Shown: piece by piece, positions 6,591 to 56,604 of the stretch | Layout of the letters: every line of letters starts with the position of its first letter | Numbering within the stretch: the first letter of the stretch is position 1 | Assembly (NCBI RefSeq): GCF_003033925.1 | Contig: NZ_CP028365.1 | Span: 496,001-560,000 of the forward strand | DNA length: 64,000 nucleotides | Source of the DNA: Tannerella serpentiformis | Lineage (GTDB): Bacteria > Bacteroidota > Bacteroidia > Bacteroidales > Tannerellaceae | Direction: 5' to 3' | Translations under genes and position numbers: made by a program | Notes under the pieces: generated by a model | The model's input: only the letters and a program-made list of their open reading frames with translations | What the model was told of the DNA's origin: nothing | The model's database searches: none

Positions 6591-6812
6591 GCGATTTCCT
6601 GAGGAAATGAGCCGAAATAGTTTTGTGGCGGCCGATTTCCTGAGGAAATGAGCCGAAAAAGTTTGTGGCGGCCGATTTCCTGAGGAAATGAGCCGAAAAA
6701 GTTTGTGGCGGCCGATTTCCTGAGGAAATGAGCCGAAATAGTTTTGTGGCGGCCGATTTCCTCAAGGAAATGAGCCGAAAAAGTTTTGTGGCAGGCGATT
6801 TCCTCCAGAAAA
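6591..6812. repeat. Tandem array, 40-42-bp unit, six copies, palindrome TTTCCTGAGGAAA
   Basis: The motif GATTTCCTGAGGAAATGA recurs with starts at 6593, 6634, 6674, 6714, 6755 (core CCTCAAGG) and 6797 (degenerate, CCTCCAG), spaced 41, 40, 40, 41 and 42 bp. The spacer is GCCGAAA(A/T)AGTTTGTGGCGG with small length changes. It lies between two divergent genes. The CCTGAGG core and the late CCTCAAGG variant are the same as in the array at 605-990, while the flanks differ. Confidence 0.92.
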
Positions 6813-12949: not shown

Positions 12950-12999
12950 TATTTCGTTTTTCGTTTACTTCTATTGAACACTATTTTGCTATCGTCCTG

Positions 13000-13007
13000 C
13001 AAATATA
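13000..13007 (-). promoter_or_regulatory. -7 element (TATATTTG) for the DUF6261-like gene
   Basis: A perfect TAnnTTTG on the minus strand about 50 bp upstream of the start codon at 12949. Confidence 0.6.
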
Positions 13008-13111
13008 TGGCAGCCCCCTTGAACCTCTGGCCCTCGCCGTAGACCCTTCCCGGGGCGCCTGACCGACGGTGGCCGGTAAATTGATTTTCGTTGGAGGCGG
13101 GTCTGTGTCCG

Positions 13112-13239
13112 GGGCTATTGTCGTGAGGGGCTTTGCCCCCTATCCCCCACACCCTTTTCTTGTCTTGATACAAGAAAAGGGCGCAAAAGAAAATCAAGCC
13201 CCCACCGGGGGCGGGGAAGCTGGCCGGGTACGGGATGGG
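13112..13239. repeat. Composite hairpin element, copy 1
   Basis: It contains GGGGCTTTGCCCC, then CTTTTCTTGTCTTGATACAAGAAAAG (a long imperfect palindrome at about 13154-13179), then a C-rich/G-rich stem around CCCCCACCGGGGG and the sequence GGCCGGGTACGGGATGGGG. Near-identical copies start at the equivalent point 1008 bp (14161) and 1176 bp (14329) downstream, i.e. 24 and 28 times 42 bp. Confidence 0.88.
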
Positions 13240-13303
13240 GCTATTGAAATGGTTTCCGACGCGGGCAGCCGACGTGTGGGCGCCGTTGTCGGCTGTCAGG
13301 GTA

Positions 13304-13324
13304 GGGGCGAATTGTATTCGCCCC
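13304..13324. repeat. GGGGCGAATTGTATTCGCCCC palindrome, variant of the dispersed GCGTATGC family
   Basis: Complementary GGGGCGAAT and ATTCGCCCC-like arms. Relatives are at 14479-14499 and 14577-14597 in this stretch, and at 13 further places listed with the entry at 25333. Confidence 0.85.
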
Positions 13325-13364
13325 AGCACGTACCAAAAAGGAACGGGGGCGCCTGACGGTCAGT

Positions 13365-14110
13365 GGCCGGTAAATGGGTTTCCATCGGAGGCGGACGACG
13401 GCCGGTGGCCGGTAAATGGGTTTCCATCGGGGGCGAATGGGTGACACGGGCCGACAAAATAAATTCCGGCGGGGGCGGGTTTGTGTCAGTGGCCGGTAAA
13501 TGGGTCTCCATTTGAGGCGAATGGGTGACACCGGCCGGTAAAATAATTTCCGTTGGGAACATTGGACGCAAAGTCGCTCCCGAATGGGTTTCCAACGGGG
13601 AGATAGGAATGATCTATACACAGAAAGACAGATGGTTCGGCTACTCCCACCGGATAGACGCTCGCATCGGATTTTATTTCATGGACTCCCGTCGTTGTCT
13701 CGCCTCCATTGAGGATATCAATGGGGGTGTGTTTTTGAAATTATGCCCCATTGAATACTTCAACGATAGCGTGATCGCACAATTACACCCCATTGAACAC
13801 TTCAATGAGGGTGTGATCGCAAAATAACGCATCATTGAAGGCCTCAACGGGGGCGTGATCGTGAAATAGGTTCCCAAACGGATTTTTTATGGAGGCGACG
13901 GTGCGCCGGGGGTTCGTGAAATGTTTTCCGATGGGGGCGGATGGGTACCCAAGGTTAGCGAAATGGTTTCCGACAGGGGCGGGTTTGTGTCCGGAGTTCA
14001 CGAATTGTTTTTCGATGGAAGCCATTGACATGAAATCGCCCCCACCGGAATATGCGGCGGAGGCGGATGGGTGCCCGAGGTTCTCGAAATGGTTTCTGGC
14101 GGGGGCGGGG
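13365..14110. repeat. Degenerate 42-bp lattice between DUF6261 and MBOAT genes
   Basis: GGCCGGTAAA or its variant starts at 13365, 13407, 13449, 13491 and 13533, all 42 bp apart. The register then passes to a CATTGA palindrome set (ATTGAA-CAC-TTCAAT) at 13707, 13749, 13791 and 13833, again 42 bp apart. GTTTCCGA(C/T)(G/A)GGGGCGG-type units follow at 13924, 13966, about 14008 and 14092. The sequence changes along the stretch but the spacing does not. Small open frames here are by-products. Confidence 0.88.
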
Positions 14111-14119
14111 TTGTGTCGG

Positions 14120-14413
14120 GGGCTATTGTCGTGAGGGGCTTTGCCCCCTATCCCCCACACCCTTTTCTTGTCTTGATACAAGAAAAGGGCGCAAAAGAAA
14201 ATCAAGCCCCCACCGGGGGCGGGGAGGCTGGCCGGGTACGGGATGGGGCCATTAAAATGGTTTCCGACGGGGGCGGGTTTGTGCCAGGGGCTATTGTCGT
14301 GGGGGGCTTTGCCCCCTATCCCCCACACCCTTTTCTTGTCTTGATACAAGAAAAGGGCGCAAAAGAAAATCAAGCCCCCACCGGGGCGGGGAAGCTGGCC
14401 GGGTATGGGATGG
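14120..14413. repeat. Composite hairpin element, copies 2 and 3 in tandem (168-bp step)
   Basis: CCTTTTCTTGTCTTGATACA begins at 14161 and again at 14329, 168 bp (4 x 42) apart. Each copy includes the GGGGCTTTGCCCCC stem, the tract around the CAAGAAAAG palindrome, and the CCCCCACCGGGG stem. Confidence 0.9.
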
Positions 14414-14711
14414 GGCCGTTGAAATGGTTTTCGGCGGGGGCGGGTTTGTGTCGGGGGCTATTGTCGGCCGTCAGGGTAGGGGCGAATTGCATTCGCCCCA
14501 GCACGTACCAACAAGGGACGAGGGCGCCTGACCGAAAATCGCTCGTCATGGATTTGCCCCTGACGGGGCATCTGTGGGGGCGTATGCCATACGCCCCTAC
14601 CCTACCGGCGGATGGCATGTGCCCGCCGTTGAAATGGTTTCCGACGGGGGCACCTGACGCCTAAGGGCTGTATATGGGTACCAGGCCATCTTGGCCGGCG
14701 TCCCTGACGCC
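14414..14711. repeat. Remaining repeat-derived spacer before the MBOAT gene end
   Basis: It holds GAAATGGTTT(T/C)CG-type units and two dispersed palindromes (14479-14499, 14577-14597). No gene is supported. Confidence 0.7.
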
Positions 14712-19414: not shown

Positions 19415-19504
19415 TAAACCCTCACAGAGAGGGAGTCCGCTCTCCATTCCCTGGCAAGAACTCATAAAAACATGCTCATACATAACATATCAACAAGTGA
19501 CTCT

Positions 19505-22500
19505 ATGAAACGGATATTTCTACTGATGACGATCGCGACAGTGGCTTGGGCCATCGTGTCGTGCCGGTCAAACCAAGATCTTACCCCTTCCATCGAATTT
19601 GCGCCCTACATCTCTGCCTATACGGGGGGTGTCATCGGCTCGGATGGGACGATACGCATCGAATTGACCGAAGAACAACAGATTGTACAGATGGGCGAGG
19701 AAGTGAAGGACGATCTCTTCGACTTTTCTCCTGGTCTGAAAGGCAAAACGTATTGGGTCAACAGTCGCACGATTGAGTTCGTGCCTGATTCTGGGCAATT
19801 ACGCCCGGGGACACTCTACAATGCGACCTTCCGCTTGGGGCGTGTGATGAAAGTGGAGAAGAAACTGGATGCGTTTCGCTTCTCCTACCGCGTACAAGCG
19901 CGTGACTTTACGGCGCGCATCACCTCAACCGACATCACAGCCTCGGCCCCGGACCGCGTGACCGTGTGCGGCGAGCTTAGACTGAGCGAAGCGCCCAAGG
20001 CGGATGAGGTCGCGAAGATGGTGACGGCCAAACATGACGGCGATAAGCCCAAGGTGACGGTCACAAGGACGGAAGACGCCCGGGTGTACCGCTTCACCGT
20101 CTCGGAAGTCGCCAAAAAAGAGGCCGACACGGAACTCCCAGTGACGATAGACGGCAGCCCTTTCGGCGCAGACCATAAGGAGACGCTCCGAGCTACCATC
20201 CCGGGCACGAAACCCCCTTTCAAGTTGATGCAAGCCGAGATGATCGACGAGCCGGAGAGTGGCGTCTGCCTGACCTTCTCCGCCCCCGTCTCCACGACGC
20301 AAGATGTGAACGGTTTAGTCACTCTCCGGGCTGGCGAAGGGGGATCTGACGGCGCTGTATCCTACACCTGTCAGGTGCAAGACAACAAAGTGCGACTTTT
20401 CTTCGAGCGGCGGAGCGATTTGAAGGCTGTCGCCATCGAGGTAGACGGTGCGCTGCGCAGCATGGCGGGTGATGCCTTGACGGCTTCCTCGTCCGTGCGG
20501 CTGGAGGTGAAATCGCTCAATCCGCAGGTCGAATTCCTGTCCGAGGGGACGATTATGCCGAACGCGGAGCAGCTCATTTTGCCTTTCCGAGCCGTAAATC
20601 TCTATGCGGTAGACCTAAAAATTATCCGCATTTTCGAGCGTAACGTCCTGACCTTCTTACAGGACAACTCGCTCGAGGCTTCCTCCTCGTCAGAACTCCG
20701 GCGGACGGGTCGACTCGTCTATCGCAAGATGCTCAGACTCGACAACGACGCCACGAAAGACATTCACAACTGGGATAATTACTTCATCGACCTCAGCAAA
20801 CTCATTCGTCAGGAACCGGGAGCCATCTACCGCGTCGTGCTTTCGTTTAAGCGCGAGTATTCAGCTTATCCCTGCGACAGCGTCGAGGGTGGTGCGCGAA
20901 ATTTAGGCCCTGCTGGCATGACGCGACTGGATGAAAACGAGTTGGGAGAGGCAGACGAGGCCACGTGGGACAAGCCACAAACCTATTACTCCGACGGCGC
21001 AGACATCGATTGGGATACTTACCAGTGGGAAGAGCGCGACAATCCGTGCTCGGCCAGTTATTATATATCGTCAGACCGTATGGCGGCCACGAACGTACTT
21101 GCCTCGAACTTAGGGCTTATCGTCAAGGCCAATGCGAATAATACGCTCTGGGTAGCAGTCTCTAATTTGATCGATACGAAGCCTTTGTCGGGCGTAGAAG
21201 TGACGGTTTACAACTTCCAACTGCAACCCATCGGCAGCGCAAAGACCGACGAAAATGGCTTTGCCGAAATCAAGACGAAAAATAAGCCCTTCGCCCTCGT
21301 GGCTACCGCTTCGGACAAGCAAAAAGGCTACCTCCGACTCGTGGACGGGGAGGAAAACATGCTTAGCCGCTTCGACATTGGCGGCAAAGAGACTGAACGC
21401 GGACTGAAAGGCTTCATCTACGGCGAGCGTGGCGTATGGCGGCCCGGTGACACCCTCCACGTGACCTTCATGATGGAAGATCGCGAAAAACGTATCCCTC
21501 AAAATCATCCCGTTTCGATAGAGATCTTCAATCCGCGTGGCCAATTCTACACGAAACAGATCTCCGTCAGTGGTGTGAATGGCATGTATGTTTTCCATAT
21601 CCCCACCCGACCGGATGACCCTACCGGACTTTGGAACGCTTACGTGAAAGTAGGCGGTGCCAGCTTCCATAAGGCGCTGCGGATCGAAACCGTAAAGCCC
21701 AATAGGCTCAAAATCAACCTTACGCTGCCCGGTCAAATCTTGCAAGTGTCCCCGCTGCCGGTGCCGATGAACCTTGAATCGGCCTGGCTGACCGGTGCCG
21801 TGGCGCGTGGGCTAAAAGCTAAGGTGGAGATGTCCCTCACGAAGGTGCCGACGCAATTCAAAGGCTACGAAAAGTACACCTTCGACAATCCCGCAGCGGC
21901 ATTCACCTCCGGTACGACCGATCTTTTTGACGGCGCACTGAGTGATGTGGGAAAAGCATCCTTCCTCGCCAACCTGCCTACGGCATCTGATGCACCTGGC
22001 ATGCTGCAAGCCAACCTCACTTGCCGAGTCTTTGAACCTGGAGGTGACGCAAGTCTCTTCACGCAGAGCATTCCATTCTCTCCTTTCCCCGTTTACGTCG
22101 GCGTCAAGCTGGGCAATTTCGACCAAGGTCAGACCCTTGAGACGGATCGGGATCACCACTTCGAGGTAGTCACCCTCTCGCCCGATGGCAAGCCTCTTAA
22201 CCGCCAAGGACTGGAATACAAGATCTACAAAGTGAACTGGAGCTGGTGGTGGGAGCATGACGACGAGACGTTTGCCTCTTATCTCAACAACGCATCTATC
22301 GTCCCCGTCGCGGCGGGAACAATCAACACGGTGGGAAGCGGCAAAGCCGTGATCCCCTTCCGAGTCAACTATCCTGAATGGGGTCGCTATTTGGTGTATA
22401 TCAAGGATCGCGAGGGTGGACATGCCACGGGCGGCACGATTTACGTGGATTGGCCCGAATGGCGCGGTCGCTCGAACAAATCTGACCCTAACGGCATCAA

Positions 22501-25126
22501 AATGTTGGCCTTCGCGCTCGATAAATCGTCTTACGAGGTGGGTGAAACGGCCACCGCCATCATTCCTGCCTCTACCGGCGGACGCGCATTGGTCGCCATT
22601 GAAAATGGTACGGAAGTGCTCCATCGTGAATGGGTCAACATGGCCGCCTCGGGCGATACGAAATACAGTTTTAAGGTCACCGAGGGCATGGCGCCCAATG
22701 TCTACCTCCACATTACCCTCATCCAGCCTTACGCACAGACTGCTAACGATCTGCCGATCCGTATGTATGGCGTGATGCCCGTCTTCGTGACCCATAAAAA
22801 TTCCATCCTGAAGCCCTTGATCGTCATGCAAGATGTGTTGAGGCCCGAAGCGGACTTCACTGTGCAAGTCAAAGAGCAATCAGGCCGCCCGATGACCTAC
22901 ACGCTGGCTATTGTGGACGATGGACTCCTCGACCTGACCAATTTTCAGACTCCCGACCCCTGGAATACCTTCTACGCCCGCGAGGCGCTCGGTATTCGCA
23001 CCTGGGATATGTACGATTTCGTCATGGGCGCCTATGCCGGCCGTCTGGGATCCCTCTTCAGCGTCGGGGGCGACGAGTCTCTGCGCCCAGTAGAGTCAAA
23101 AGCGAACCGGTTTAAGCCTGTCGTGAAGTTCCTTGGGCCTTTCGCGCTGAAGAAGGGAGAAACACAGACGCATAAGCTCAAACTTCCGCCTTATATCGGA
23201 TCTGTTCGCGTCATGGTAGTGGCCGGACAGGAAGGGGCGTACGGACGTGCCGAAAAAAGGGTGGCTGTGCGTGCGCCGTTGATGGTTCTTTCGTCTTTGC
23301 CTCGCGTCGTGAGCACGGATGAGGAAATTCTTTTCCCGGTGAATGTCTTTGCGATGGAGAGCGGCGTGAAAAATGTGACCGTGAAAGTGGAAACCACGGG
23401 CAAGTTGCGACTTACTGAAGGCTCCAGCCAGTCCGTCACGTTCGCGGCACCTGGCGATAAACCCGTGTTTTTCAAGCTCCGATCGGGTCTGACCACTGGC
23501 ATTGAACGCATAGTCGTCACCGCTACCGGCGGCGGACACTCCTCCAAGGAAACGATCGAAATCGGCGTCCGCAATCCCAATCCCCCCATCGTAAGGATCG
23601 ACAGCCGCCTCATCGCTGCGGGATCCACCGGTCTCTTGACCTATCAAACGGGCTTCGGCGGATCATCCGAGGGCTGGGCAAGCCTCGAAGTGGCTCGCAT
23701 ACCCTCTCCCAACCTCAGCAGATGCCTCGATTTTCTCAGCGATTACCCTCATTACTGCACAGAACAGGTCACTTCTGCCGCCTTACCCCTTCTTTACGTC
23801 GGTGCTTTCCGAGAATTGGATAAGCGCGAGGCTGATGCCATCCGTGAAAACGTCCGCCGCGCCGTCCAAGACCTTTACAGCCGACAATTACCCGGCGGTG
23901 CCTTCACGTATTGGCCTGGTGGCTTGCAAGAAGACGAGTGGGCGACCTCGTACGTGGGCACTTTCCTCGTTTTAGCCCGCGAAAAAGGCTACGAGGTGAA
24001 TGCTGGCGCACTGAATCGGTGGAAATCGTACCAGCGACGGGCTGCACAGGGGTGGAGGCCGGCCGCCAAGGCGCCTTCACGCTTTGCTATCGACCAGGGA
24101 GACCTTGTCCAGGCTTACCGACTCTATGCCTTGGCCTTAGCAGGTGCTCCCGAGCTGGGCGCGATGAACAGATTGCGTGAGAGTCGCACACTTTCGATGC
24201 AGGCACGGTGGCGTCTCGCCGCAGCGTATGCTTTGGCGGGCAAGCCGAACATAGCTAACGAATTAATATTCAGAATTCCCCTCGCGGTGGCGACTTACGA
24301 TTGGAGCAATCCGACGTACGGGTCGCCGGAGCGTGATCAAGCCATGATATTAGAGGCGCTCGTGCTGATGGGGCGTGATCGGGAGGCGTTCGAGCAGGCT
24401 CGACGCGTGTCGCAAAGCCTTACCACGTCGCAAGAGTTCGCTACCCAGTCCACGGCTTACGCCCTCTTGGCCTTAGGAAGACTGGCCGAACGCACGTCGG
24501 GCAGCCTTCAGTTCGATTGGAGCCTAAACGGCGGCAAGCAACCGACAGTCAACAGTCAGCGGACCCTCTTCCGCAGCCAGTTGCCCACCTTCCCGCCCGT
24601 AGGACTCGTCTCCGTCAAGAATAACGGCAAGGGTCAGCTCTATGTAAGCCTCACCACGAAGATGATACCCCTTCGCGACTCCCTGCCAGCCATCTCCGAA
24701 GGCCTCCGCATGGAAGTCACCTATACAGATAGGTCCGGGCGTGCCCTCTCGGTGGATCGTCTGCCGCAAGGAACCGATCTCGTGGCCGTGGTCAAGGTAT
24801 CTAACCCCTCGGCGGTGTCCGACTACACCAATCTAGCCCTTACCCAGATCATACCCTCCGGTTGGGAGATCTACAACGAGAGGCTTATCACGCCGGAAGA
24901 CGTCGAGTCGGGCGCCTCAGCCACATCCTACACGTATAGAGACATCCGCGACGACCGCGTACTGACCTACTTCGACCTCAAGAGAGGCGAGACGAAAACG
25001 TTCCGCGTACGATTGCAAGCCTCATACGCCGGATCATTCATTCTACCCGCCATCCGTTGTGCAGCCATGTACGCCCCCGGCGTGCAAGCCCGCACCCGTG
25101 CCAGTCGCGTAGTCGTAGAGCGATAA
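19505..25126 (+). CDS. Bacterial alpha-2-macroglobulin family lipoprotein (thioester type)
   Basis: This start gives 1873 residues and a clear lipoprotein signal (MKRIFLLMTIATVAWAIVSC, Cys20). An in-frame ATG 33 bases upstream would add 11 residues in front of the signal and is less likely. The body has the MG-domain series of bacterial A2M, including the MG2-like FIYGERGVWRPGDTLHVTF, and the thioester motif CTEQ at about Cys1418, followed by an alpha-helical toroid-like segment and a receptor-binding-like end. Such proteins trap foreign proteases near the cell surface. Many bacterial A2M genes sit next to pbpC; none is seen here. A hairpin terminator follows. Confidence 0.93.
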   Translation: MKRIFLLMTIATVAWAIVSCRSNQDLTPSIEFAPYISAYTGGVIGSDGTIRIELTEEQQIVQMGEEVKDDLFDFSPGLKGKTYWVNSRTIEFVPDSGQLRPGTLYNATFRLGRVMKVEKKLDAFRFSYRVQARDFTARITSTDITASAPDRVTVCGELRLSEAPKADEVAKMVTAKHDGDKPKVTVTRTEDARVYRFTVSEVAKKEADTELPVTIDGSPFGADHKETLRATIPGTKPPFKLMQAEMIDEPESGVCLTFSAPVSTTQDVNGLVTLRAGEGGSDGAVSYTCQVQDNKVRLFFERRSDLKAVAIEVDGALRSMAGDALTASSSVRLEVKSLNPQVEFLSEGTIMPNAEQLILPFRAVNLYAVDLKIIRIFERNVLTFLQDNSLEASSSSELRRTGRLVYRKMLRLDNDATKDIHNWDNYFIDLSKLIRQEPGAIYRVVLSFKREYSAYPCDSVEGGARNLGPAGMTRLDENELGEADEATWDKPQTYYSDGADIDWDTYQWEERDNPCSASYYISSDRMAATNVLASNLGLIVKANANNTLWVAVSNLIDTKPLSGVEVTVYNFQLQPIGSAKTDENGFAEIKTKNKPFALVATASDKQKGYLRLVDGEENMLSRFDIGGKETERGLKGFIYGERGVWRPGDTLHVTFMMEDREKRIPQNHPVSIEIFNPRGQFYTKQISVSGVNGMYVFHIPTRPDDPTGLWNAYVKVGGASFHKALRIETVKPNRLKINLTLPGQILQVSPLPVPMNLESAWLTGAVARGLKAKVEMSLTKVPTQFKGYEKYTFDNPAAAFTSGTTDLFDGALSDVGKASFLANLPTASDAPGMLQANLTCRVFEPGGDASLFTQSIPFSPFPVYVGVKLGNFDQGQTLETDRDHHFEVVTLSPDGKPLNRQGLEYKIYKVNWSWWWEHDDETFASYLNNASIVPVAAGTINTVGSGKAVIPFRVNYPEWGRYLVYIKDREGGHATGGTIYVDWPEWRGRSNKSDPNGIKMLAFALDKSSYEVGETATAIIPASTGGRALVAIENGTEVLHREWVNMAASGDTKYSFKVTEGMAPNVYLHITLIQPYAQTANDLPIRMYGVMPVFVTHKNSILKPLIVMQDVLRPEADFTVQVKEQSGRPMTYTLAIVDDGLLDLTNFQTPDPWNTFYAREALGIRTWDMYDFVMGAYAGRLGSLFSVGGDESLRPVESKANRFKPVVKFLGPFALKKGETQTHKLKLPPYIGSVRVMVVAGQEGAYGRAEKRVAVRAPLMVLSSLPRVVSTDEEILFPVNVFAMESGVKNVTVKVETTGKLRLTEGSSQSVTFAAPGDKPVFFKLRSGLTTGIERIVVTATGGGHSSKETIEIGVRNPNPPIVRIDSRLIAAGSTGLLTYQTGFGGSSEGWASLEVARIPSPNLSRCLDFLSDYPHYCTEQVTSAALPLLYVGAFRELDKREADAIRENVRRAVQDLYSRQLPGGAFTYWPGGLQEDEWATSYVGTFLVLAREKGYEVNAGALNRWKSYQRRAAQGWRPAAKAPSRFAIDQGDLVQAYRLYALALAGAPELGAMNRLRESRTLSMQARWRLAAAYALAGKPNIANELIFRIPLAVATYDWSNPTYGSPERDQAMILEALVLMGRDREAFEQARRVSQSLTTSQEFATQSTAYALLALGRLAERTSGSLQFDWSLNGGKQPTVNSQRTLFRSQLPTFPPVGLVSVKNNGKGQLYVSLTTKMIPLRDSLPAISEGLRMEVTYTDRSGRALSVDRLPQGTDLVAVVKVSNPSAVSDYTNLALTQIIPSGWEIYNERLITPEDVESGASATSYTYRDIRDDRVLTYFDLKRGETKTFRVRLQASYAGSFILPAIRCAAMYAPGVQARTRASRVVVER

Positions 25127-25171
25127 AGAAGCGGAGAGATAGGTCGATACACCCGCCTGATTCTATGTCGC

Positions 25172-25207
25172 AAACGGCATCTTCCGAGAGGAGGTGCCGT
25201 TTTTTTG
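25172..25207 (+). terminator. Terminator after the alpha-2-macroglobulin gene
   Basis: AACGGCA and TGCCGTT arms around a short loop, followed by seven T. Confidence 0.82.
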
Positions 25208-25332
25208 TACCGTTCCCTTACGTTTAGATCGTTATGCCCCCAAAACGCGATACGTTTTCAGATTATACGATCGTTATATCCCAAAAACGTGATGCGTTTT
25301 GCGCATTCGCCATCCTTTGGATGACGTCCGGT

Positions 25333-25353
25333 GGGGCGTATGCAATACGCCCC
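25333..25353. repeat. Dispersed palindrome GGGCGTATGCAATACGCCC (first copy of this form)
   Basis: Copies of this form or its inverse (GCGTATTGCATACGC) start near 25333, 25838, 25903, 26300, 26364, 26701, 26844, 26911, 27013, 30543, 30607, 60851 and 61470. Variants at 13304, 14479 and 14577 give sixteen in the window. Most are followed or preceded by CTAC/GTAG. All are intergenic. Confidence 0.9.
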
Positions 25354-25394
25354 TACGTAGGACCCCAAAAAATCAATGCGTTTTCTATTTTCAT

Positions 25395-25635
25395 CATGTA
25401 CCCGGTTAACTTCCCCGGCCTCGGCAGAGGCCTTGATTTTCTTTTGCCTTCTTTTCTTGTATCAAGACAAGGCCCCTACCGGGGCAGGGAAGTTTTTCTC
25501 GGTACATTTTTAAGATCAATCATGTACCCGGTCAACTTCCCCGGCCTCGGTAGAGGCCTTGATTTTCTTTTGCCTTCTTTTCTTTCATCAAGGAAAGAAA
25601 AGAAGGTAGGGGCATGGGGGCAAAGCCCCCGATTT
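25395..25635. repeat. Composite hairpin elements, two copies, 126-bp step
   Basis: CATGTACCCGGT begins at 25395 and 25521, 126 bp (3 x 42) apart. Each copy has a GGCC-rich stem (GGCCTCGGCAGAGGCC type), TTGATTTTCTTTTGCCTTC, and a TTTTCTT stem. The second copy ends in a complete CTTTTCTTTCATCAAGGAAAGAAAAG palindrome and a GGGGCAAAGCCCC stem. Confidence 0.87.
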
Positions 25636-26104
25636 TTATGCCCCAAGATCAATATATCCGGAAAATGTGATCCGTTTTCGGATTATTAGATCGTTATATC
25701 CGAAAAATGAACCGCGTTTCCATCATTCATCGAATATGAATCTCCAAAACGTGACGCGTTTTCGGATTGTTAGATCGTTATAATCTGAAAAACTGACACG
25801 TTTTGCGCATTCGCCATCCTTGGGATGGCGTTTGGTTGGGCGTATGCAATACGCCCCTACATGGGATCTCAAAAAATCAACGCGTTTTCTGATAACACGG
25901 TAGGGGCGTATTGCATACGCCCCACAAACGTTCCATCTATGGATCTAATAACCTAAAAACGTGATGCGTTTCCATCATTCATCGAATATAAATCTCCAAA
26001 ACGTGATGCGTTTTCTGGTTATTAGATCCTTATATCCCGAAAACGTATCACGTTTTCCACATTCATCATCATTAAAATGGTATTCGGTGTAGCGTATTCT
26101 TCTT

Positions 26105-26200
26105 GCCTCTACCTTCTTTTCTTGTCTTGATACAAGAAAAGAAGGCAAAAGAAAATCAAGGCCTCTACCGAGGTCGGGGAAGATGGCCGGATACATGATG
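26105..26200. repeat. Composite hairpin element in inverse orientation
   Basis: CTTTTCTTGTCTTGATACAAGAAAAG palindrome, then AAAAGAAAATCAAGGCCTC, a GGCCTC/GAGG(T)C stem and GGCCGGATACATGATG. A near-identical copy is at 26570-26663, also flanked by AAAACG palindromes 168 bp apart. Confidence 0.87.
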
Positions 26201-26569
26201 GAAATAGAAAACGTGACGCGTTTTGGGATTATATGATCGTTATATCCTGAAAAATTGACGCGTTTCGTGCATTCGCCATCCTTGGGATGGCGTCCGGTAG
26301 GGCGTATGCAATACGCCCCTACATGAGATCTCAAAAAATCAATATGTTTTCCGGTAACACGGTAGGGGCGTATTGCATACGCCACACAAACGTTCTATCT
26401 ATGGAACGAATATCCTAAAAACGTGATGCGTTTCTATCATTCATTGAATATGAACACCAAAAACGTGATGCGTTTTCTGGTTATTAGATCCTTATATCCC
26501 GAAAACGTATCACGTTTTCGACATTCATCATCATTAAAATGGTATTCGGCGAAGCGTATTCATCATGCC

Positions 26570-26663
26570 TCTACCTTCTTTTCTTGTCTTGATACAAGAA
26601 AAGAAGACAAAAGAAAATCAAGGCCTCTGCCGAGGCCGGGGAAGATGGCCGGGTACATGATGA
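26570..26663. repeat. Composite hairpin element in inverse orientation, further copy
   Basis: Same structure as 26105-26200, with perfect GGCCTCTGCCGAGGCC stem. The flanking lattice palindromes start at 26502 and 26670, exactly 168 bp apart. Confidence 0.87.
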
Positions 26664-27061
26664 AAATAGAAAACGTGATGCGTTTTCTGGTAACATGGTA
26701 GGGGCGTATTGCATACGCCCCACAAACGTTCCATCTATGGAACGAATAACCTGAAAACGTGACGCGTTTTCTGATTATTAGATCCTTATATCCCAAAAAC
26801 GTATCACGTTTTGCGCATTCTCCATCATTGGTATGTCGTCCGGTGGGGCGTATGCAATACGCCCCTACATGGAACCCCGAAAAATCAACGCGTTTTCTGG
26901 TAACATGGTAGGGGCGTATTGCATACGCCCCACAAACGTTCTATCTATGGAATGAATAACCTAAAAACATATCATGTTTTGCGCATTCGCCATCCTCGGG
27001 ATGGTGTCCGGTGGGGCGTATGCAATACGCCCCTACCCTGACGGTCTAAAAATTATCGTGC

Positions 27062-27490
27062 CTAAACCTTGCTACTTAGTAGGAAGTGAAAAACGCGCCG
27101 CGTTTGGGACTTGCTACCTAGTAGGAAGTGAAAAACGCGCCGCGTTTGGGACTTGCTACCTAGTAGGAAGTGAAAAACGCGCCGCGTTTGGGACTTGCTA
27201 CCTAGTAGGAAGTGAAAAACGCGCCGCGTTTGGGACTTGCTACCTAGTAGGAAGTGCGAAACACGCCGCGTTTGGGACTTGCTACTTAGTTGGAAGTGAA
27301 AAACGCGCCGCGTTTGGGACTTGCTACCTAGTTGGAGGTGAAAAACGCGCCGCGTTTGGGACTTCCATCTTAGTTGGAAGTGAAAAACGCGCCGCGTTTG
27401 GGACTTCCATCTTAGTTGGAGGTGCAAAACGCGCCGCGTTTTAGTCTTCCATCTAAGATGGATGTTTTGCCTTCGCCGCGTTTTGCTGAT
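27062..27490. repeat. Tandem array, 42-bp unit, nine to ten copies, palindrome AAACGCGCCGCGTTT
   Basis: AAAACG (AAAC in one variant) starts at 27090, 27132, 27174, 27216, 27258, 27300, 27342, 27384 and 27426, each 42 bp apart, with a degenerate tenth copy near 27468. The spacer GGGACTTGCTACCTAGTAGG drifts to GGGACTTCCATCTTAGTTGG in the last copies. It continues the register of the lattice before it: 27090 minus 25242 is 44 x 42. It ends about 110 bp before the uvrA -7 element. Confidence 0.94.
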
Positions 27491-27599
27491 CAATCAAAGT
27501 ATTTTAATGTAAAACTTCGTGTAGATGGGGTCTTTTCCTTTTTTGAAGTGGTGCTTCTTTTTGAGATGGATAATCAGTGTATCAATGACTTATTCGACC

Positions 27600-27607
27600 T
27601 ACCTTTG
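27600..27607 (+). promoter_or_regulatory. -7 element (TACCTTTG) for uvrA; decides the start codon
   Basis: A perfect TAnnTTTG located inside the longest open frame of uvrA. Transcription from here begins near 27612, so methionine codons before it cannot be used from this promoter. The first available one is at 27650. Confidence 0.7.
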
Positions 27608-27649
27608 TGGCCACTTACATCAGACATAGATCTCATCACACGCAACAAA

Positions 27650-30469
27650 ATGACCGTATCCAAGATGAAAGAGGCCGTATGGCAAGACGATAATTGCATC
27701 CTTATCAAGGGAGCAAGGGTCAACAATCTGAAAAATATAGATGTACGTATCCCGAGAGACCGATTCGTGGTCATTACAGGGCTTTCGGGCAGCGGAAAGT
27801 CGTCGCTGGCTTTCGATACGCTCTATGCCGAGGGCCAACGTCGCTATGTGGAGAGTCTGTCGGCCTATGCCAGGCAGTTTCTTGGCCGAATGAGCAAGCC
27901 GGAATGTGATTATATTAAAGGTATACCCCCGGCCATTGCCATTGAGCAGAAAGTGAGCGTCCGGAATCCCCGATCGACGGTCGGGACGTCGACTGAAATC
28001 TATGATTACCTCCGATTGTTGTTCGCCAGACTGGGTCGTACTTTTTCGCCTGTCTCTGGACAGGAGGTGAAGAAGCATCAAGTGTCTGATGTAGTCGAAA
28101 AGGCGCTCTCCTACCCGACTGGCACTCGGTTGGCGGTCTATGCGCCGATCGTTTTGCCGGAAGGGAGGACGATGAAGGAGCAACTCGAGATCTTGCAAAA
28201 AGAGGGTTACACGAGAATAGAGGCGGGCGGGCGCGTGATGCGCCTTCAAGAGGTGTTGGAACAGGAAAAGTGGCCCACGGAAGGGGTATATATTTTGATT
28301 GACCGCCTCGAAGTGTCCGACGACAAGCTCTTTAGGAACAGATTAGCTGACTCCGTGGAAACGGCTTTCTACGAAGGGCATGAGACATGCCGCCTCAGCG
28401 TCTACGCTAAGCCTGGGGCCGATCCTGAGGTCCTCGAATTTTCCAAACGTTTCGAGGCTGACGGCCTGACGTTCGAGGAACCGACCGAGATGATGTTCAA
28501 TTTTAATAATCCGATGGGCGCCTGCCCGCAATGTGAGGGCTTCGGACGGGTAGTAGGTATCGATGAGGACCTTGTGATCCCGGATAAAAACCTGTCGGTC
28601 TATGAGGGCGCGGTCGCGTGCTGGAGGGGTGAGGTGATGGATCAGTGGCGACGCGATTTTATGCGGACGGCATCGAAAAAGGACTTCCCGATTCATCGTG
28701 CTTATTACGATCTAACGGATGAGGAGCGCCATCTGCTCTGGCATGGGGCAGAGGATGTGAATGGCATCGACGATTTTTTCGCAGACGTGGAGGTCAATGT
28801 GTATAAAATACAGTATCGCGTGTTGCTTGCGCGATATCGAGGAAAAACGACTTGCCCCACGTGCCACGGGACGCGCTTAAAACCCGAAGCGCTCTATGTC
28901 CGCGTCGGCGGACGGACAATCACCGAACTGGTATCTATGCCCATCACCGAACTACGTGCTTTTTTCTCCGATTTAAGGCTCAACGAGACCGAGGCAACGA
29001 TTGGAAAGCGACTATTGGCCGAGATCACGACCCGGATTCAGTACCTTCTCGATGTGGGACTCGGTTACCTGACGCTCGATCGCCTATCTGCGTCGCTTTC
29101 AGGCGGCGAGAGTCAGCGCGTCAGCCTATCCACCTCGCTGGGAAGTAGCCTCGTGGGCTCGCTTTATATACTCGACGAACCGAGCATTGGTCTCCATCCG
29201 CACAATACGGATCAATTGATCCGAGTGCTCCGGCAATTGCAGACGCAGGGCAACACGGTCGTCGTAGTAGAGCATGACGAGGAGATTATTCGGGCTGCGG
29301 ATTACATTATTGACATCGGCCCAGCCGCGGGAAGGCTTGGTGGCGAGGTGATATATCAAGGCCCGGTCAGCGAAATAGAAAAAGGCGCCAAGGAGAGCTT
29401 CACCGTGCGCTATCTGACGGGGGAAGAGCAGATTGAAGCCCCCGACGCGCCTCGGCTCTGGAACGAATTTATCGAAGTACGGGGCGCTCGGAAAAACAAT
29501 CTGAAGCAAATCGATGTCAAGTTCCCACTTCACGCCATGACGGTCGTTACCGGGGTCAGTGGGTCGGGAAAAAGCTCGCTCGTTCGGGATATTTTGTATG
29601 AGGGATTGAAACAACTCTTAGACGATGCGCCTCTAACCGTGGAGTGCCTCGCTATCGAGGGCGATGTGCAGCATATCAAGAACATAGAGTTCATAGATCA
29701 AAATTCGATCGGGAAAAGTTCGCGGTCAAATCCCGTCACTTATATCGGGGCGTACGAAGAAATACGGAAACTCTTTGCCGAACAACCGCTTTCGAAGCAA
29801 ATGGGTTACACACCAGCCCATTTCTCGTTCAATAAGGAGGGAGGTCGCTGCGAGGAGTGCAAAGGCGAGGGACGGATCACGGTCGAAATGCAGTTTATGG
29901 CCGACATCACGCTCGAGTGTGAGGCTTGTCACGGGCGGAGGTTCAACGCCGACACGCTGGAGGTGGAATATCACGGGGTGAACATTTACGACGTGCTCGA
30001 GATGACGGTTGCACAGGCAATGGAGTTCTTCAGCGCGCAGAAGGACGACAAACAAGCCAAGAAAATAGTCGCTCGCTTGACGCCTTTGCAAGAAGTAGGC
30101 TTGGGGTATATCAAACTCGGGCAATCCTCGTCGACCCTATCTGGAGGCGAGAACCAGCGCGTCAAATTGGCCTACTATTTAGGGTTAGAGAAGCAGCATC
30201 CGGCGACGATGTTCATCTTCGACGAACCTACGACTGGCCTTCATTTCCACGATATTAAGACCCTACTCAAAGCCTTCTCCGATCTGATCCGCCTGGGGCA
30301 CACGGTAGTTATTATTGAGCACCATCCGGACGTAATCAAGTGTGCCGACTACGTCATTGACCTCGGTCCCGAAGGCGGGAAAGCCGGTGGACACCTGATC
30401 TGTGCCGGCACCCCGCGCGAGATTGCCGCCTGCCCCGAGTCCCTAACCGGCCGCTACCTCAAACTTTAG
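27650..30469 (+). CDS. uvrA: Excinuclease ABC subunit A
   Basis: From the ATG at 27650 the protein has 939 residues, the usual UvrA size. An in-frame ATG at 27416 would add 78 residues with no family similarity, partly coded by the repeat array. It carries two ABC modules: Walker [10 protein letters not shown] and GVSGSGKSS, signatures SGGESQR and SGGENQR, and Walker [12 protein letters not shown] and FDEPTTGLH. Cysteine zinc modules CPQC, CPTC...CHGT and CEEC...CEAC are visible. It recognises bulky DNA lesions in nucleotide excision repair with UvrB. A second possible start, ATG at 27665, also fits ([10 protein letters not shown]). Confidence 0.96.
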
Positions 30470-30529
30470 CAACTCATCAACGGTATATGTCCGCGATCGA
30501 TCCACGGTTCGGGCCATTCGTTCCATAAA

Positions 30530-31008
30530 TGGAACGTTTGTAGGGCGTATGCAATACGCCCCTACCTTGTTACCCGAAAACGTATCGATTTTTCAGGTCT
30601 CTGTGTAGGGGCGTATTGCATACGCCCCACCAGACGCCATTTTAATGATGGCGGATGCCGAAAACGTGATACATTTTTGGGGTACAAGGATCTAATAATC
30701 CCCAAACGCATCACGTTTTGGGCATTCATATTCAATGAATAATGGGAATGCGGTTCATTTTTCAGATATAACGATCTATTAATCCCAATACGCGGTACGT
30801 TTTCTGAATATATTGATCTTGGAGAATAAAAATCAGGGGCTTTGCCCTCATACCCCTACCTTCTTTTCTTTCCTTGATGAAAGAAAAGAAGGCAAAAGAA
30901 AATCAAGGCCTCTGCCGAGGCCGAGGAAGTTGACCGGGTACATGATTTACCTTGAAAATGTACCGTGTTTTGGGCATACATATTCCATGTATCCCTAAAA
31001 ACACACCG
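30530..31008. repeat. 42-bp lattice and hairpin element between convergent uvrA and phosphopantetheinyl transferase genes
   Basis: AAAACG-type palindromes start at 30577, 30661, 30703, 30745 (degenerate), 30787, 30955 and 30998, in steps of 84, 42, 42, 42, 168 and 43 bp. The 168-bp gap holds a composite hairpin element (about 30825-30945, CTTTTCTTTCCTTGATGAAAGAAAAG and a GGCC stem). Two GCGTATGC palindromes lie at 30543 and 30607. Confidence 0.9.
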
Positions 31009-36401: not shown

Positions 36402-36452
36402 ATGCTTCATTTTTTACGGGAAAGGTGTCCGCACATCCACGAGACGTTTTTT

Positions 36453-36662
36453 ACCTCTCGCGAGACCTTCAGAACCTCTCGTGAGACCTTTTTTACCTCT
36501 CCGAAGACGTTCAGAACCTCTTACGAGACCTTTTCTACCTCTCGCGAGACCTTCAGAACCTCTCGTGAGACCTTTTCTACCTCTCGCGAGACGTTCAGAA
36601 CCTCTCGCGAGACCTTTTTTACCTCTCCGGAGACGTTTAGAACCTCTCAGCCCATTTTTCGC
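36453..36662. repeat. Tandem array, 21-bp unit, ten copies (two alternating forms, 42-bp higher unit)
   Basis: ACCTCTCGCGAGAC-type units start at 36453, 36474, 36495, 36516, 36537, 36558, 36579, 36600, 36621 and 36642, exactly 21 bp apart. The core CTCGCGAG is palindromic. Tails alternate between CTTTTTT/CTTTTCT and (C/G)TTCAGA, so the true period is 42 bp. It lies upstream of the 35779 gene, downstream of the TIR gene. Confidence 0.94.
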
Positions 36663-47534: not shown

Positions 47535-47643
47535 CTTTTTCCTGTTTATATTTAGTATTATAATTTACATCTGGAAGAGAATCTACTACCCGCTGTGACT
47601 TATAAGTCTCATATCGGCAACGATTCCCTTCGTTTCATGGCCA

Positions 47644-47651
47644 CAAAGTTA
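47644..47651 (-). promoter_or_regulatory. -7 element (TAACTTTG) for the 46581 gene
   Basis: A perfect TAnnTTTG on the minus strand, about 110 bp before the start codon. Confidence 0.5.
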
Positions 47652-47759
47652 GAACATGTTTTTGAAACAAACACCAAGCACAATCGAAAAAAAATGGAGG
47701 CACTTTTTCCTCATATATAAAGTACGGAGAAGCAAGCCCTCGGCAAAGATGGCTCTCCC

Positions 47760-48490
47760 CTCCCCCAATCGTACCAAACATCGCCCATTAACTATATGTA
47801 CAAGGCAAAAATAGATGGCGATCATCGCCTTGATTTTCTTTTGATTCTTTTTCTTTCATCAAGGAAAGAAAAGAAGAACCGTTCCGAGAGGCAACCACAT
47901 GGCCAAACCCATGCAAAGCAGCGCTATCCCGATAAAAGATCAGACTATCTTTCTATAGATCAAACTTAGAGCATGCTCTCAAAAACGAAAACCTCACAAG
48001 GACACTCCCCTCCCTCTCCAATTGTACAAAATACTGCCCATTAATTACATGTACAAGGTAAAAATAGATGGCGATCATCGCCTTGATTTTCTTTTGATTC
48101 TTTTCTTTCATCAAGGAAAGAAAAGAAGAACCGTTCCGAGAGGCAACCACATGGCCAAGCCTATGCAAAGCAGCGCTATCACAATAAAATATCAGCCTAT
48201 CTTTATACAGATTAGACTTATAGAGCACTCTCAAAAGCAAAAAACCAGCGAGGATGCTCTTCCTATCCCCTAGGTGCACAAAATACTGCCCATTAACTAC
48301 ATGTACAAGGCAACAATAGATGGCGATCATCGCCTTGATTTTCTTTTGATTCTTTTCTTTCATCAAGGAAAGAAAAGAAGAACTGTTCCGAGAAGCAATC
48401 ACATAGCCAAACTCATATAAAGTAGCGTTACCACGATAAAAGATCAGCCCATTTTTATATAGATCAGACTTAGAGCGCGCTCTTAAAAGT
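47760..48490. repeat. Three direct copies of a ~252-bp unit containing the hairpin element
   Basis: GCCCATTAA(C/T)TA starts at 47783, 48036 and 48287 (steps 253 and 251, i.e. 6 x 42). Each unit has GCGATCATCGC (palindromic), TTGATTTTCTTTTGATTC, the TCTTTCATCAAGGAAAGA palindrome, and a long AT-richer part ending with AGAGC(A/G)C(G/T)CTCT. Copies have diverged by point changes. Confidence 0.9.
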
Positions 48491-48499
48491 AAAAACCCG

Positions 48500-48732
48500 G
48501 TGAGGATTCACATCCAAGAGCCAAAAGACACGAAAAACCCATCGAGGATTCCTATCCAAGAGCTAAAAGACATGAAAGACCTGCCGGGGATTCCCATCCA
48601 AGAGACAAAAGATACGAAAGGCCTGCCGGGGATTTCTATCGAAGAGCCAAAAGACACGAAAAACCCGGCGAGGATTCCTATCCAAGAGCCAAAAGATACG
48701 AAAAATCCGGCAAGGATTCCCATCCAAGAGTG
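48500..48732. repeat. Tandem array, 42-bp unit, about 5.5 copies
   Basis: GAGGATTC-type starts at 48502, 48544, 48586, 48628, 48670 and 48712, exactly 42 bp apart. Unit: GAGGATTCCTATCCAAGAGC followed by CAAAAGACACGAAAAACCCG and GC. No clear palindrome, unlike the other arrays. It follows the 252-bp repeats directly. Confidence 0.93.
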
Positions 48733-49060
48733 CCAATGAAGCAAATTCCCGCCAATTTTTAGATCTGGTATGTATCAGAGAAGCAAATCTTTGATAGGTT
48801 TTGAGTGCAAAGTGAGTCAGAGAAGCATATCTTGATCTAATTTGAAGTAGGAAAAGTGTCAGTGAAGAAAATCATCGATAGGTGCTCTGCCATTTTCTTT
48901 TCATGGAAGCAGATTCTTGGTAGATTCTAGATACTCTTCTTTTCTCGGAATTGAATTTATGACAGACTGATGATCAAAATCTACTTGTGGAAGTGATTTT
49001 TCGATGGATTTAGGGTATAAATCTTCTCGATGAAGATAAGAAACGCCGATATTTTAGATC
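48733..49060. other. AT-rich intergenic stretch
   Basis: About 330 bp, clearly more AT-rich than the genes, with loosely repeated phrases such as GTCAGAGAAGCA (48774, 48812) that may be decayed repeat units. No gene is supported. Confidence 0.4.
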
Positions 49061-49099
49061 AAAAAAAGACCGGAAAGCGCAAAGCCTTCCGGTCTTTCG
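49061..49099. terminator. Terminator of the alpha/beta hydrolase gene
   Basis: An 11-bp perfect stem (AAAGACCGGAA and TTCCGGTCTTT). On the minus strand it is followed by a T-run, and T-rich sequence also follows on the plus strand. Confidence 0.82.
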
Positions 49100-49212
49100 T
49101 TATGGGATAGAGTCGCGTCAGCCGACTCGCCTCCTTTGCGCTTCATTTTACGCCTGCGTACGGCAATAAGGCTACGAAAAGGTTTATCTGGCGGTCAAAG
49201 AATGTCATTTTG

Positions 49213-55454: not shown

Positions 55455-56580
55455 ATGGAGTTAAAAAGTAGTTATGCAACCTTGCGGGCTGCGGGATTTG
55501 GCGCACCCTTGGGGGCGACTTTCGTTTGGCCTCAAGGCCGTTCGGGTTGCGGATTGATCCGCGGTATCCTTGGCCGAAAGAGGTCTAAAGAACATTCATG
55601 CAACCCTGCGGGCTGCGAGATTTGGCGTACCCTTGGGGGCGACAGTCGTTTGGCCCCAAGACTGGGCAAGTTGCGGGCTGCGCCCGCGACACCTTGGCCC
55701 AAAGGGTCTAAAAAAACATTCATGCAACCCTGTGGGCTGCGGGATTTGGCGCGCCCTCGGGGGCGACTTTCGTTTGGCCTCAAGACCAAGCAAGTTACGG
55801 ATTGAGTCCGCGGTACCCTTGGCCCAAAAAGGGCTAAAAAACAATCATGCAACCTTGCGAGCTGCGGGATTTGGCGCACCCTTGGGAGCGACAGTCGTTT
55901 GGCCTCAAGGCCGGGCGGGTTGCAGACTGCGCCCGCGGCACCTTGGCCCAAAGGGGTCTAAAAAACATTCATGCAGCCTTGCGGGCTGCGAGATTTGGCG
56001 CACCCTCGGGGGCGACTTTCGTTTGGCCTCAAAACCAAGCGATTTGCGGGCTACGCTCGCGGCACCTTGGCCCAAAGGGGGCTAAAAAAACATTCATGCA
56101 ACCCTGCGGGCTGCGGGATTTGGCGCGCCCTCGGGGGCGACGGTCGTTTGGCCTCAAGGCCGGGCAATTTGCGGACTGAGTCCGCGGTACCCTTGGCCGA
56201 AAGGGCGCTAAAAAAAACATTCATGCAGCCCTGCGGGCTGCGGGATTTGGCGTGTCCTCGGGGGCAACTTTCGTTTGGCCTCAAGGCCGGGCAAGTTGCG
56301 GGCTGCGCCCGCGGCACCTTGGCCCAAAGGGGGCTAAAAAACATTTCTGCAACCCTGCGGGCTGCGGGATTTGGCGTGCCCTTGGGGGCGACGGTCGTTT
56401 GGCCTCAAGGCCGGGCGATTTGCGGGCTGCGCCCGCGGCACCTTGGCCGAAAGGGGTCAAAAAAACATTCATGCAACCCTGCGGGCTGCGGGATTTGGCG
56501 CGCCCTTGGGGGCAACTTTCGTTTGGCCTCAAAGCCGGGTGGGTTGAGGATTGAGTCCGCGGCACCTTGACCGAAAGAGG
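55455..56580. repeat. Tandem array, ~124-bp unit, nine copies
   Basis: (A/C)TGCA(A/G)CC starts at 55474, 55598, 55722, 55847, 55971, 56096, 56223, 56347 and 56471; steps are 124, 124, 125, 124, 125, 127, 124 and 124 bp. Each unit has GCGGGCTGCGGGATTTGGCG, then a variable GACTTTCG/GACAGTCG part, TTTGGCCTCAAGGCC (palindromic), GCGGGCTGCGCCCGCGGCAC, and an A-run of 4-7 bases. The A-run explains the small length changes. The TCC/GGA variants (GGATTGAGTCCGCGG) alternate irregularly. Confidence 0.95.
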
Positions 56581-56604
56581 TACGCTTCGGAGCGTGAACG
56601 AGGG

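What the first reader, a model, noticed from the sequence alone, without database searches (positions are those of the whole stretch)
25233..27490. Register kept net over 44 units although different elements are inserted
The AAAACG palindrome ladder goes from 25242 to 27090, a distance of 1848 bp = 44 x 42. In between lie composite hairpin elements in gaps of exactly 168 bp (26040-26208, 26502-26670) and 294 bp (25368-25662), and GCGTATGC palindromes in 84-bp gaps. Single-base slips (43 then 83) compensate each other. The hairpin elements therefore do not interrupt the lattice; they occupy whole multiples of it.
Basis: seen in the sequence. Interest (0 to 1): 0.78.

Follow-up and report, generated by a model that had tools for sequence, protein, structure and literature searches.

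The report
Genome-wide 42-bp palindromic repeat lattice
Between two genes of a Tannerella-like bacterium lies a 2.2-kb stretch built on an exact 42-base grid (four turns of the double helix) that keeps step even where other mobile repeats sit inside it, and hundreds of unrelated repeat arrays in the same genome use nearly the same step, so the spacing, more than the sequence, seems to be what is conserved.

Summary
From 25242 to 27468 the A2M-uvrA spacer is 53 rows of exactly 42 bp. All 27 ladder palindromes are at phase 0; the reported 43/83 slips do not exist. Hairpin elements (168 and 294 bp gaps) and GTAG-type REP palindromes (84 bp gaps) fill whole rows, and inverted copies sit at exactly mirrored phases. 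An inverted paralogue beyond uvrA holds one hairpin element where this locus holds two; the gap differs by exactly 126 = 3 x 42. Four loci of this family give 109 rows with at least 449 substitutions and no net indel. Genome-wide, 26 of 46 close same-strand REP spacings are exact multiples of 42 (p about 2e-30); most others follow a local pitch of 43 or about 42.2. About 75 arrays per 400 kb, of unrelated sequence, have periods near multiples of 41-42. Other loci do slip by 1-5 bp, so the register is strong, not absolute. Best reading: satellite-like higher-order arrays of DNA dyads two turns apart, shuffled by recombination at in-phase palindromes and kept by selection on dyad spacing, probably for a dimeric DNA-binding or nucleoid protein (inferred). 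Nearest known kind: P. gingivalis 22/23/41-nt minisatellites, plus REP mosaics. Function untested.

The parts
25242..27468 (.). 42-bp lattice: 53 rows of exactly 42 bp with ladder palindrome AAAACGNNNNNCGTTTT at phase 0
25172..25202 (+). intrinsic terminator of the upstream alpha-2-macroglobulin gene, just before the lattice
   Evidence: 13-pair stem, T tail
25395..25466 (+). hairpin element, truncated copy, first of the two in the 294-bp gap
25521..25607 (+). hairpin element (about 86 bp), second copy, 126 bp after the first; hairpin centre at phase +3.5
26111..26197 (-). hairpin element, inverted, in a 168-bp gap; hairpin centre at phase -3.5 (mirror of the + copies)
26573..26659 (-). hairpin element, inverted, second 168-bp gap, 462 bp after the previous one
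25333..25356 (-). GTAG-type REP palindrome (GTAGGGGCGTATTGCATACGCCCC), centre at phase +9
25837..25860 (-). GTAG-type REP palindrome, phase +9
25900..25923 (+). GTAG-type REP palindrome, phase -9 (33)
26299..26322 (-). GTAG-type REP palindrome, phase +9
26362..26385 (+). GTAG-type REP palindrome, phase -9
26698..26721 (+). GTAG-type REP palindrome, phase -9
26845..26868 (-). GTAG-type REP palindrome, phase +9
26908..26931 (+). GTAG-type REP palindrome, phase -9
27013..27036 (-). GTAG-type REP palindrome, phase +9
25746..26669 (+). 462-bp (11 x 42) tandem duplication, two copies, 41 substitutions and no indel between them
27068..27441 (+). homogeneous part of the lattice: 8.9 copies, two palindromes per unit with centres exactly 21 bp apart
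30516..30965 (-). inverted paralogue of 25500-25949 on the other side of uvrA; same 42-bp rows, one hairpin element in a 168-bp gap
19472..25126 (+). upstream neighbour: bacterial alpha-2-macroglobulin
27650..30469 (+). downstream neighbour: uvrA (longest ORF starts at 27416 inside the lattice; homology starts near 27660)

Best explanation
The locus is one of several hundred satellite-like intergenic arrays. Each is a one-dimensional lattice of DNA dyads (palindromes) about 21 bp apart, giving a 41-43 bp repeat, close to four helical turns. Shown: the exact register, the mirrored phases of inverted modules, in-register higher-order duplication, capture of REP-type and hairpin elements in whole multiples of the pitch, the same pitch on unrelated sequences, and dyad columns more conserved than the rest with no G-U bias.
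For: Four loci of one family: 109 rows of 42 bp, at least 449 substitutions, zero net indels. Inverted paralogue 14-15% diverged with no net length change. Mirror phases +9/-9, +3.5/-3.5, +6.5/-6.5 for oppositely oriented elements. Whole-genome GTAG-REP spacing: 26 of 46 exact multiples of 42 (p about 2e-30); by cluster, 9 of 18 first spacings (p about 1e-10); six more are exact multiples of 43. The hairpin captures at 1.213 Mb and in the window have different flanks and element length, yet both fill whole multiples of 42. 62 of 140 spacers of 150 bp or more are strongly periodic, mostly at 41 or 42, against 8 of 491 coding windows. Periods fall on 4, 8, 12 and 16 turns; odd turns are rare. 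Dyad columns 6.8% divergent against 10.1% elsewhere; 42 compensatory cells against 22.9 expected (permutation maximum 31); G-T and A-C changes equal within error. Convergent spacers depleted: 4/20 against 58/120, p 0.027. Sister-species arrays of unrelated sequence also use 42 or 21.
Against: No binding protein is identified and no binding data exist. Over 67 sampled arrays the indel:substitution ratio is 136:1527, not obviously below a neutral ratio, although 42 arrays have none (839 substitutions). Slips of 1-5 bp exist at other loci, and pitch differs between loci (41, 42, 43). No 10.5-bp harmonic of A/T tracts above the others was found, so intrinsic curvature is not the reason. Rows and loci are related by duplication, and ectopic gene conversion could spread indel-free copies. 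Many array units have only one clear palindrome.
Confidence: 0.45

Rival explanations
1. Neutral higher-order satellite. The 42-bp grid is only the footprint of slippage and unequal exchange. Once a 42-bp minisatellite existed, every duplication, deletion or inversion between repeats preserved the register, and concerted evolution removed indel-bearing copies.
For: The 462-bp duplication and the 84/126/168/210/252/294 higher-order periods look like alpha-satellite-type higher-order repeats. Recombination between palindromes preserves a dyad-symmetric lattice automatically, mirror phases included. Arrays are species-specific in sequence.
Against: It does not explain why hundreds of unrelated sequences, and sister species, share 41-43 or 21-22 bp, nor zero indels against at least 449 substitutions.
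Confidence: 0.3
2. REP/RAYT mosaic. The arrays are BIME-like products of a Y1 (IS200-like) transposase acting on hairpins, and the spacing reflects transposition geometry.
For: 199 GTAG-tagged REPs in the genome. One Y1 transposase gene, flanked on both sides by similar REP-like palindromes. REPs occur in both orientations.
Against: Most arrays contain no REP. Y1 genes do not track arrays: absent or fragmentary in sister genomes that have 42- or 82-bp arrays. Known REP mosaics are not described with an exact pitch across families.
Confidence: 0.1
3. RNA-level function: arrays of hairpins in transcripts (terminators, mRNA stabilisers).
For: Palindromes and hairpins abound; terminator-like sites are 16 against 3.4 expected.
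Against: No G-U bias in stem changes (68 against 53, p 0.2). The array lies after A2M's own terminator. Convergent spacers are depleted. RNA hairpins need no exact pitch. No Rfam match.
Confidence: 0.07
4. Assembly artefact (collapsed or mis-threaded repeats).
For: Repeats are assembly-prone; the reads are not available here.
Against: The units are diverged and distinguishable; exact register at four separate loci; independent 42-bp arrays in other species' assemblies.
Confidence: 0.02

Closest known systems
Porphyromonas gingivalis minisatellite MITEs: BrickBuilt (23-nt repeats) and PgRS/MITE464 (41-nt repeats) (PMC4596501)
   Same: Intergenic tandem repeats of 22/23/41 nt in a related order; species-restricted sequences; predicted stem-loops; copy-number differences between strains
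   Different: About 10-20 copies per genome inside elements with IS5-like terminal inverted repeats. Here about 75 arrays per 400 kb of unrelated sequence, no such TIR enrichment in the window, and REP elements embedded in register
GTAG-tagged REPs and BIME mosaics with RAYT transposases (PMC3733652, PMC2817692)
   Same: The embedded 24-bp palindrome carries GTAG at one end; about 200 copies; both orientations; clusters; a single Y1 transposase flanked by REP-like repeats
   Different: That survey lists GTAG repeats in Proteobacteria, Cyanobacteria, Chloroflexi and the PVC group, not Bacteroidetes. Exact 42n spacing and lattice phase are not described; most arrays contain no REP
Eukaryotic higher-order satellite repeats (analogy, own knowledge)
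   Same: Diverged monomers of fixed length re-amplified as higher-order units in register
   Different: Bacterial, intergenic, short, dyad-symmetric; four-turn rather than nucleosomal monomer
Intrastrand-triplex repeats (PMC4666352)
   Same: The hairpin element has a TTTTCTTTT tract beside a CTTCTTTTCTTT/AAAGAAAAGAAG stem, as in pyrimidine-motif triplexes
   Different: Not tested as a triplex; describes only the embedded element, not the lattice

Membership tests
BrickBuilt / PgRS minisatellite MITEs | Intergenic tandem repeat of 22, 23 or 41 nt | tested here: met
   Arrays of 41-42 nt (and 21-22) in intergenic regions; here the unit is 42
BrickBuilt / PgRS minisatellite MITEs | IS5-like terminal inverted repeats (GAGACYNTTGCA type) at the ends | tested here: not met
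   Matches with up to 2 mismatches in the window equal chance (24 vs 27.3) and none lies in 25127-27650
BrickBuilt / PgRS minisatellite MITEs | Promoter activity, bidirectional | not testable with these tools
   Sigma-70-like hits equal shuffles; needs reporter assays
GTAG REP (the embedded palindromes) | 20-40 bp palindrome with GTAG at one end, high copy number, intergenic | tested here: met
   GTAGGGGCGTATTGCATACGCC: 99 + 100 copies with at most 1 mismatch, reversed-pattern control 0; the listed copies keep the tag
GTAG REP (the embedded palindromes) | Associated RAYT gene flanked by the same REP | tested here: inconclusive
   One Y1 transposase gene flanked by REP-like palindromes of another sequence; IS200/IS605 model just below its cut-off
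CRISPR array | Near-identical repeats separated by unique spacers | tested here: not met
   The whole 42-bp unit repeats and the intervals repeat too
CRISPR array | cas genes adjacent | tested here: not met
   Direct neighbours are alpha-2-macroglobulin and uvrA
Known RNA family | Match to an Rfam model | tested here: not met
   No match in the window
Protein-coding repeat | Open reading frame through the repeat | tested here: not met
   Longest ORFs in the lattice are 136-156 aa; periods of 22, 41 and 43 are not multiples of 3

The most novel reading that the evidence does not exclude
Chromosome-wide, sequence-tolerant 'pitch code': spacers are selected to hold dyads every two helical turns on one face of DNA, so that a chromosomal protein can polymerise along them. 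Mobile repeats persist in these spacers only when they fill whole multiples of the local pitch (41, 42 or 43 bp).
Probability: 0.25. Interest if true: 0.9.

Novelty: new variant of a known kind. Interest (0 to 1): 0.7.

Why it matters
If spacing, not sequence, is what is kept, these arrays would be a bacterial counterpart of phased satellite chromatin: a feature invisible to sequence-similarity searches, occupying at least 5% of a genome, and a natural assay for which DNA geometry a nucleoid protein reads. It also suggests that the 22-, 23- and 41-nt minisatellites of Porphyromonas belong to an order-wide phenomenon with a two-turn quantum.

Tried and rejected
Strain comparison at the orthologous spacer: no second strain is held, and A2M is not next to uvrA in the 16 congeneric uvrA loci examined, so paralogues were used. 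Phage and plasmid records: no match. Coding repeat: rejected (periods not multiples of 3). RNA structure: rejected as the main cause (no G-U bias). A-tract curvature at the helical pitch: no special 10.5-bp harmonic. Y1 transposase as the driver: does not track arrays. Helical phasing in general (any number of turns): odd turns are rare, so the quantum is two or four turns. A strict 42-bp law genome-wide: rejected because of +3, -1, +1, up to -5 and 124-bp cases. The 124-against-126 difference first looked like adaptation of the element to a local 41-bp lattice, but it is fully explained by two internal bases. Literature searches found no description of these arrays in Tannerella.

Full report
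Setting. The window is G000:C1:496001-560000 of a single-contig, 3,013,500-bp genome with 57% GC in the sample. Many of its nearest named relatives are Tannerella sp. assemblies; the exact species was not established. The finding lies between a bacterial alpha-2-macroglobulin gene (19472-25126) and uvrA (homology from about 27660). An intrinsic terminator (25172-25202) closes the upstream gene just before the repeat starts.

Observation. Written in rows of 42 from 25242, the region is a perfect grid to about 27468. The top autocorrelation lags are all multiples of 42. In 25233-27060, 76% of repeated 9-mer pairs are exact multiples of 42, against 2.4% expected.

What fills the larger gaps. (a) A 24-bp palindrome GTAGGGGCGTATTGCATACGCCCC in 84-bp modules, nine copies. 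It carries the GTAG tag of the REP superfamily described in PMC3733652, and the genome holds 199 copies with at most one mismatch. (b) A dispersed hairpin element of about 86 bp (66 hits in 464 kb) that folds strongly as single-stranded DNA. Both occur in both orientations, and their phases are exact mirror images about the ladder dyads: +9/-9, +3.5/-3.5 and +6.5/-6.5. This is what inversion between two in-phase palindromes would give.

Presence/absence test. No second strain is available and the gene order is not conserved in congeners. But 25500-25949 has an inverted paralogue at 30516-30965, on the far side of uvrA: 450 against 450 bp, 61 substitutions, no net indel. There, one hairpin element sits in a 168-bp gap, where the first copy has two in 294 bp, a difference of exactly 126. 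Two unlinked loci at 1.213 and 2.612 Mb carry the same ladder palindromes. In them a hairpin (126 bp), a REP pair (168 bp) and a 3 x 168 = 504-bp block again fill whole rows. The 1.213-Mb hairpin has different flank lengths and element length from the window's, so it looks like a separate capture. Together the four loci give 109 rows, at least 449 substitutions on a minimum spanning tree, and no net indel.

Genome-wide. In 464 kb, partly chosen at hits, tandem-repeat periods concentrate at 41 and 42 and at their multiples. A second sample of 400 kb, spread over the genome and, except for one stretch, not chosen at repeat hits, holds 75 arrays near multiples of 41.6 bp, covering 5.4% of the sequence; the period histogram peaks at 4, 8, 12 and 16 turns plus 2 turns. 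62 of 140 spacers are strongly periodic against 8 of 491 coding windows. The unit sequences differ between arrays. Same-strand spacings between neighbouring GTAG REPs over the whole genome (99 plus-strand copies) are exact multiples of 42 in 26 of 46 cases, and exact multiples of 43 in six more. One cluster follows about 42.2, and only a few spacings fit no pitch. Pitch is therefore a property of the locus.

Limits. Other heterogeneous lattices slipped: +3 at 1.262 Mb, -1 at window 12950-14711, +1 at 47535-49212, up to -5 where several 41-mers intrude. Over 67 arrays the indel:substitution ratio is 136:1527; 42 arrays have none. Rows are related by duplication, so counts of rows are not counts of independent events.

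Level of constraint. In 48 arrays, 42 double changes restore pairing against 22.9 expected (500 permutations, maximum 31). Dyad columns diverge less than others (6.8 against 10.1%). G-T and A-C single changes are equal within error when oriented to the genes, which argues for duplex DNA rather than RNA. Hairpin-templated repair could also produce compensatory changes. The A/T pattern has no special 10.5-bp harmonic. Arrays are rarer in convergent spacers (p 0.027).

Relatives. The sequences are not shared within the genus, apart from short matches in five of the 40 other genomes searched. But congeners hold their own arrays of period 21 or 42, with palindromes whose arms change together: the array between A2M and the next gene in L042 keeps 42 while TTGCAATTGCAA becomes GGCAATTGCC. 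In noncoding DNA of relatives, close direct repeats prefer 21/42 bp (Tannerella), 22/44/66 (other Tannerellaceae), and 22-23 and 44-46 (other Bacteroidales). P. gingivalis has 22-, 23- and 41-nt minisatellites (PMC4596501).

Mechanism. Shown: a dyad lattice, in-register duplication and inversion, whole-row capture of mobile palindromes. The strongest rival is a neutral higher-order satellite; it explains the local register well but not the shared pitch of unrelated arrays.

Verdict. Observation confirmed, interpretation supported with the caveat that slips exist elsewhere. New variant of a known kind (Bacteroidales intergenic minisatellites combined with REP mosaics), with an unexplained sequence-independent pitch.

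Noticed in passing
window 30516-30965 and 25500-25949: uvrA is bracketed by inverted copies of the same lattice, which could allow inversion of the gene.
   Followed up: partly
window 55474-56581: Array with alternating 124/125-bp spacing (249, 373, 498), about 3 x 41.5 bp per unit, covering a 1.1-kb spacer.
   Followed up: partly
L214 1489-1947 (G000:C1:1380004-1380351): Single Y1 (IS200-like) transposase gene flanked on both sides by similar REP-like palindromes (CCAGGGGTTTCGCCCC type) and near the left half of the hairpin element: a REPtron-like locus.
   Followed up: partly
window 25521-25607 and dispersed copies: The hairpin element has a TTTTCTTTT tract that could form a pyrimidine-motif intrastrand triplex with its own hairpin stem.
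   Followed up: no
L042 6261-6760: In another Tannerella assembly a heterogeneous 42-bp lattice lies between A2M and what reads like a penicillin-binding protein 1C gene, in a gene pair that is adjacent in other relatives.
   Followed up: partly
G000:C1:892507-893541, 968570-968914, 1789661-1789919: REP clusters with a local pitch of 43 instead of 42 bp (129, 172, 258, 387).
   Followed up: partly
G000:C1:2548805-2548912: Three GTAG REPs spaced 53 and 54 bp (about five turns), an exception to the four-turn rule.
   Followed up: no
window 36440-36648: Array whose unit is a single 21-bp palindrome (CGAGA..TCTCG), the half-unit of the 42-bp lattice.
   Followed up: no
window 6592-6804 and L106 14160-14533: Arrays with a 40-bp period, the short end of the observed pitch range.
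   Followed up: no
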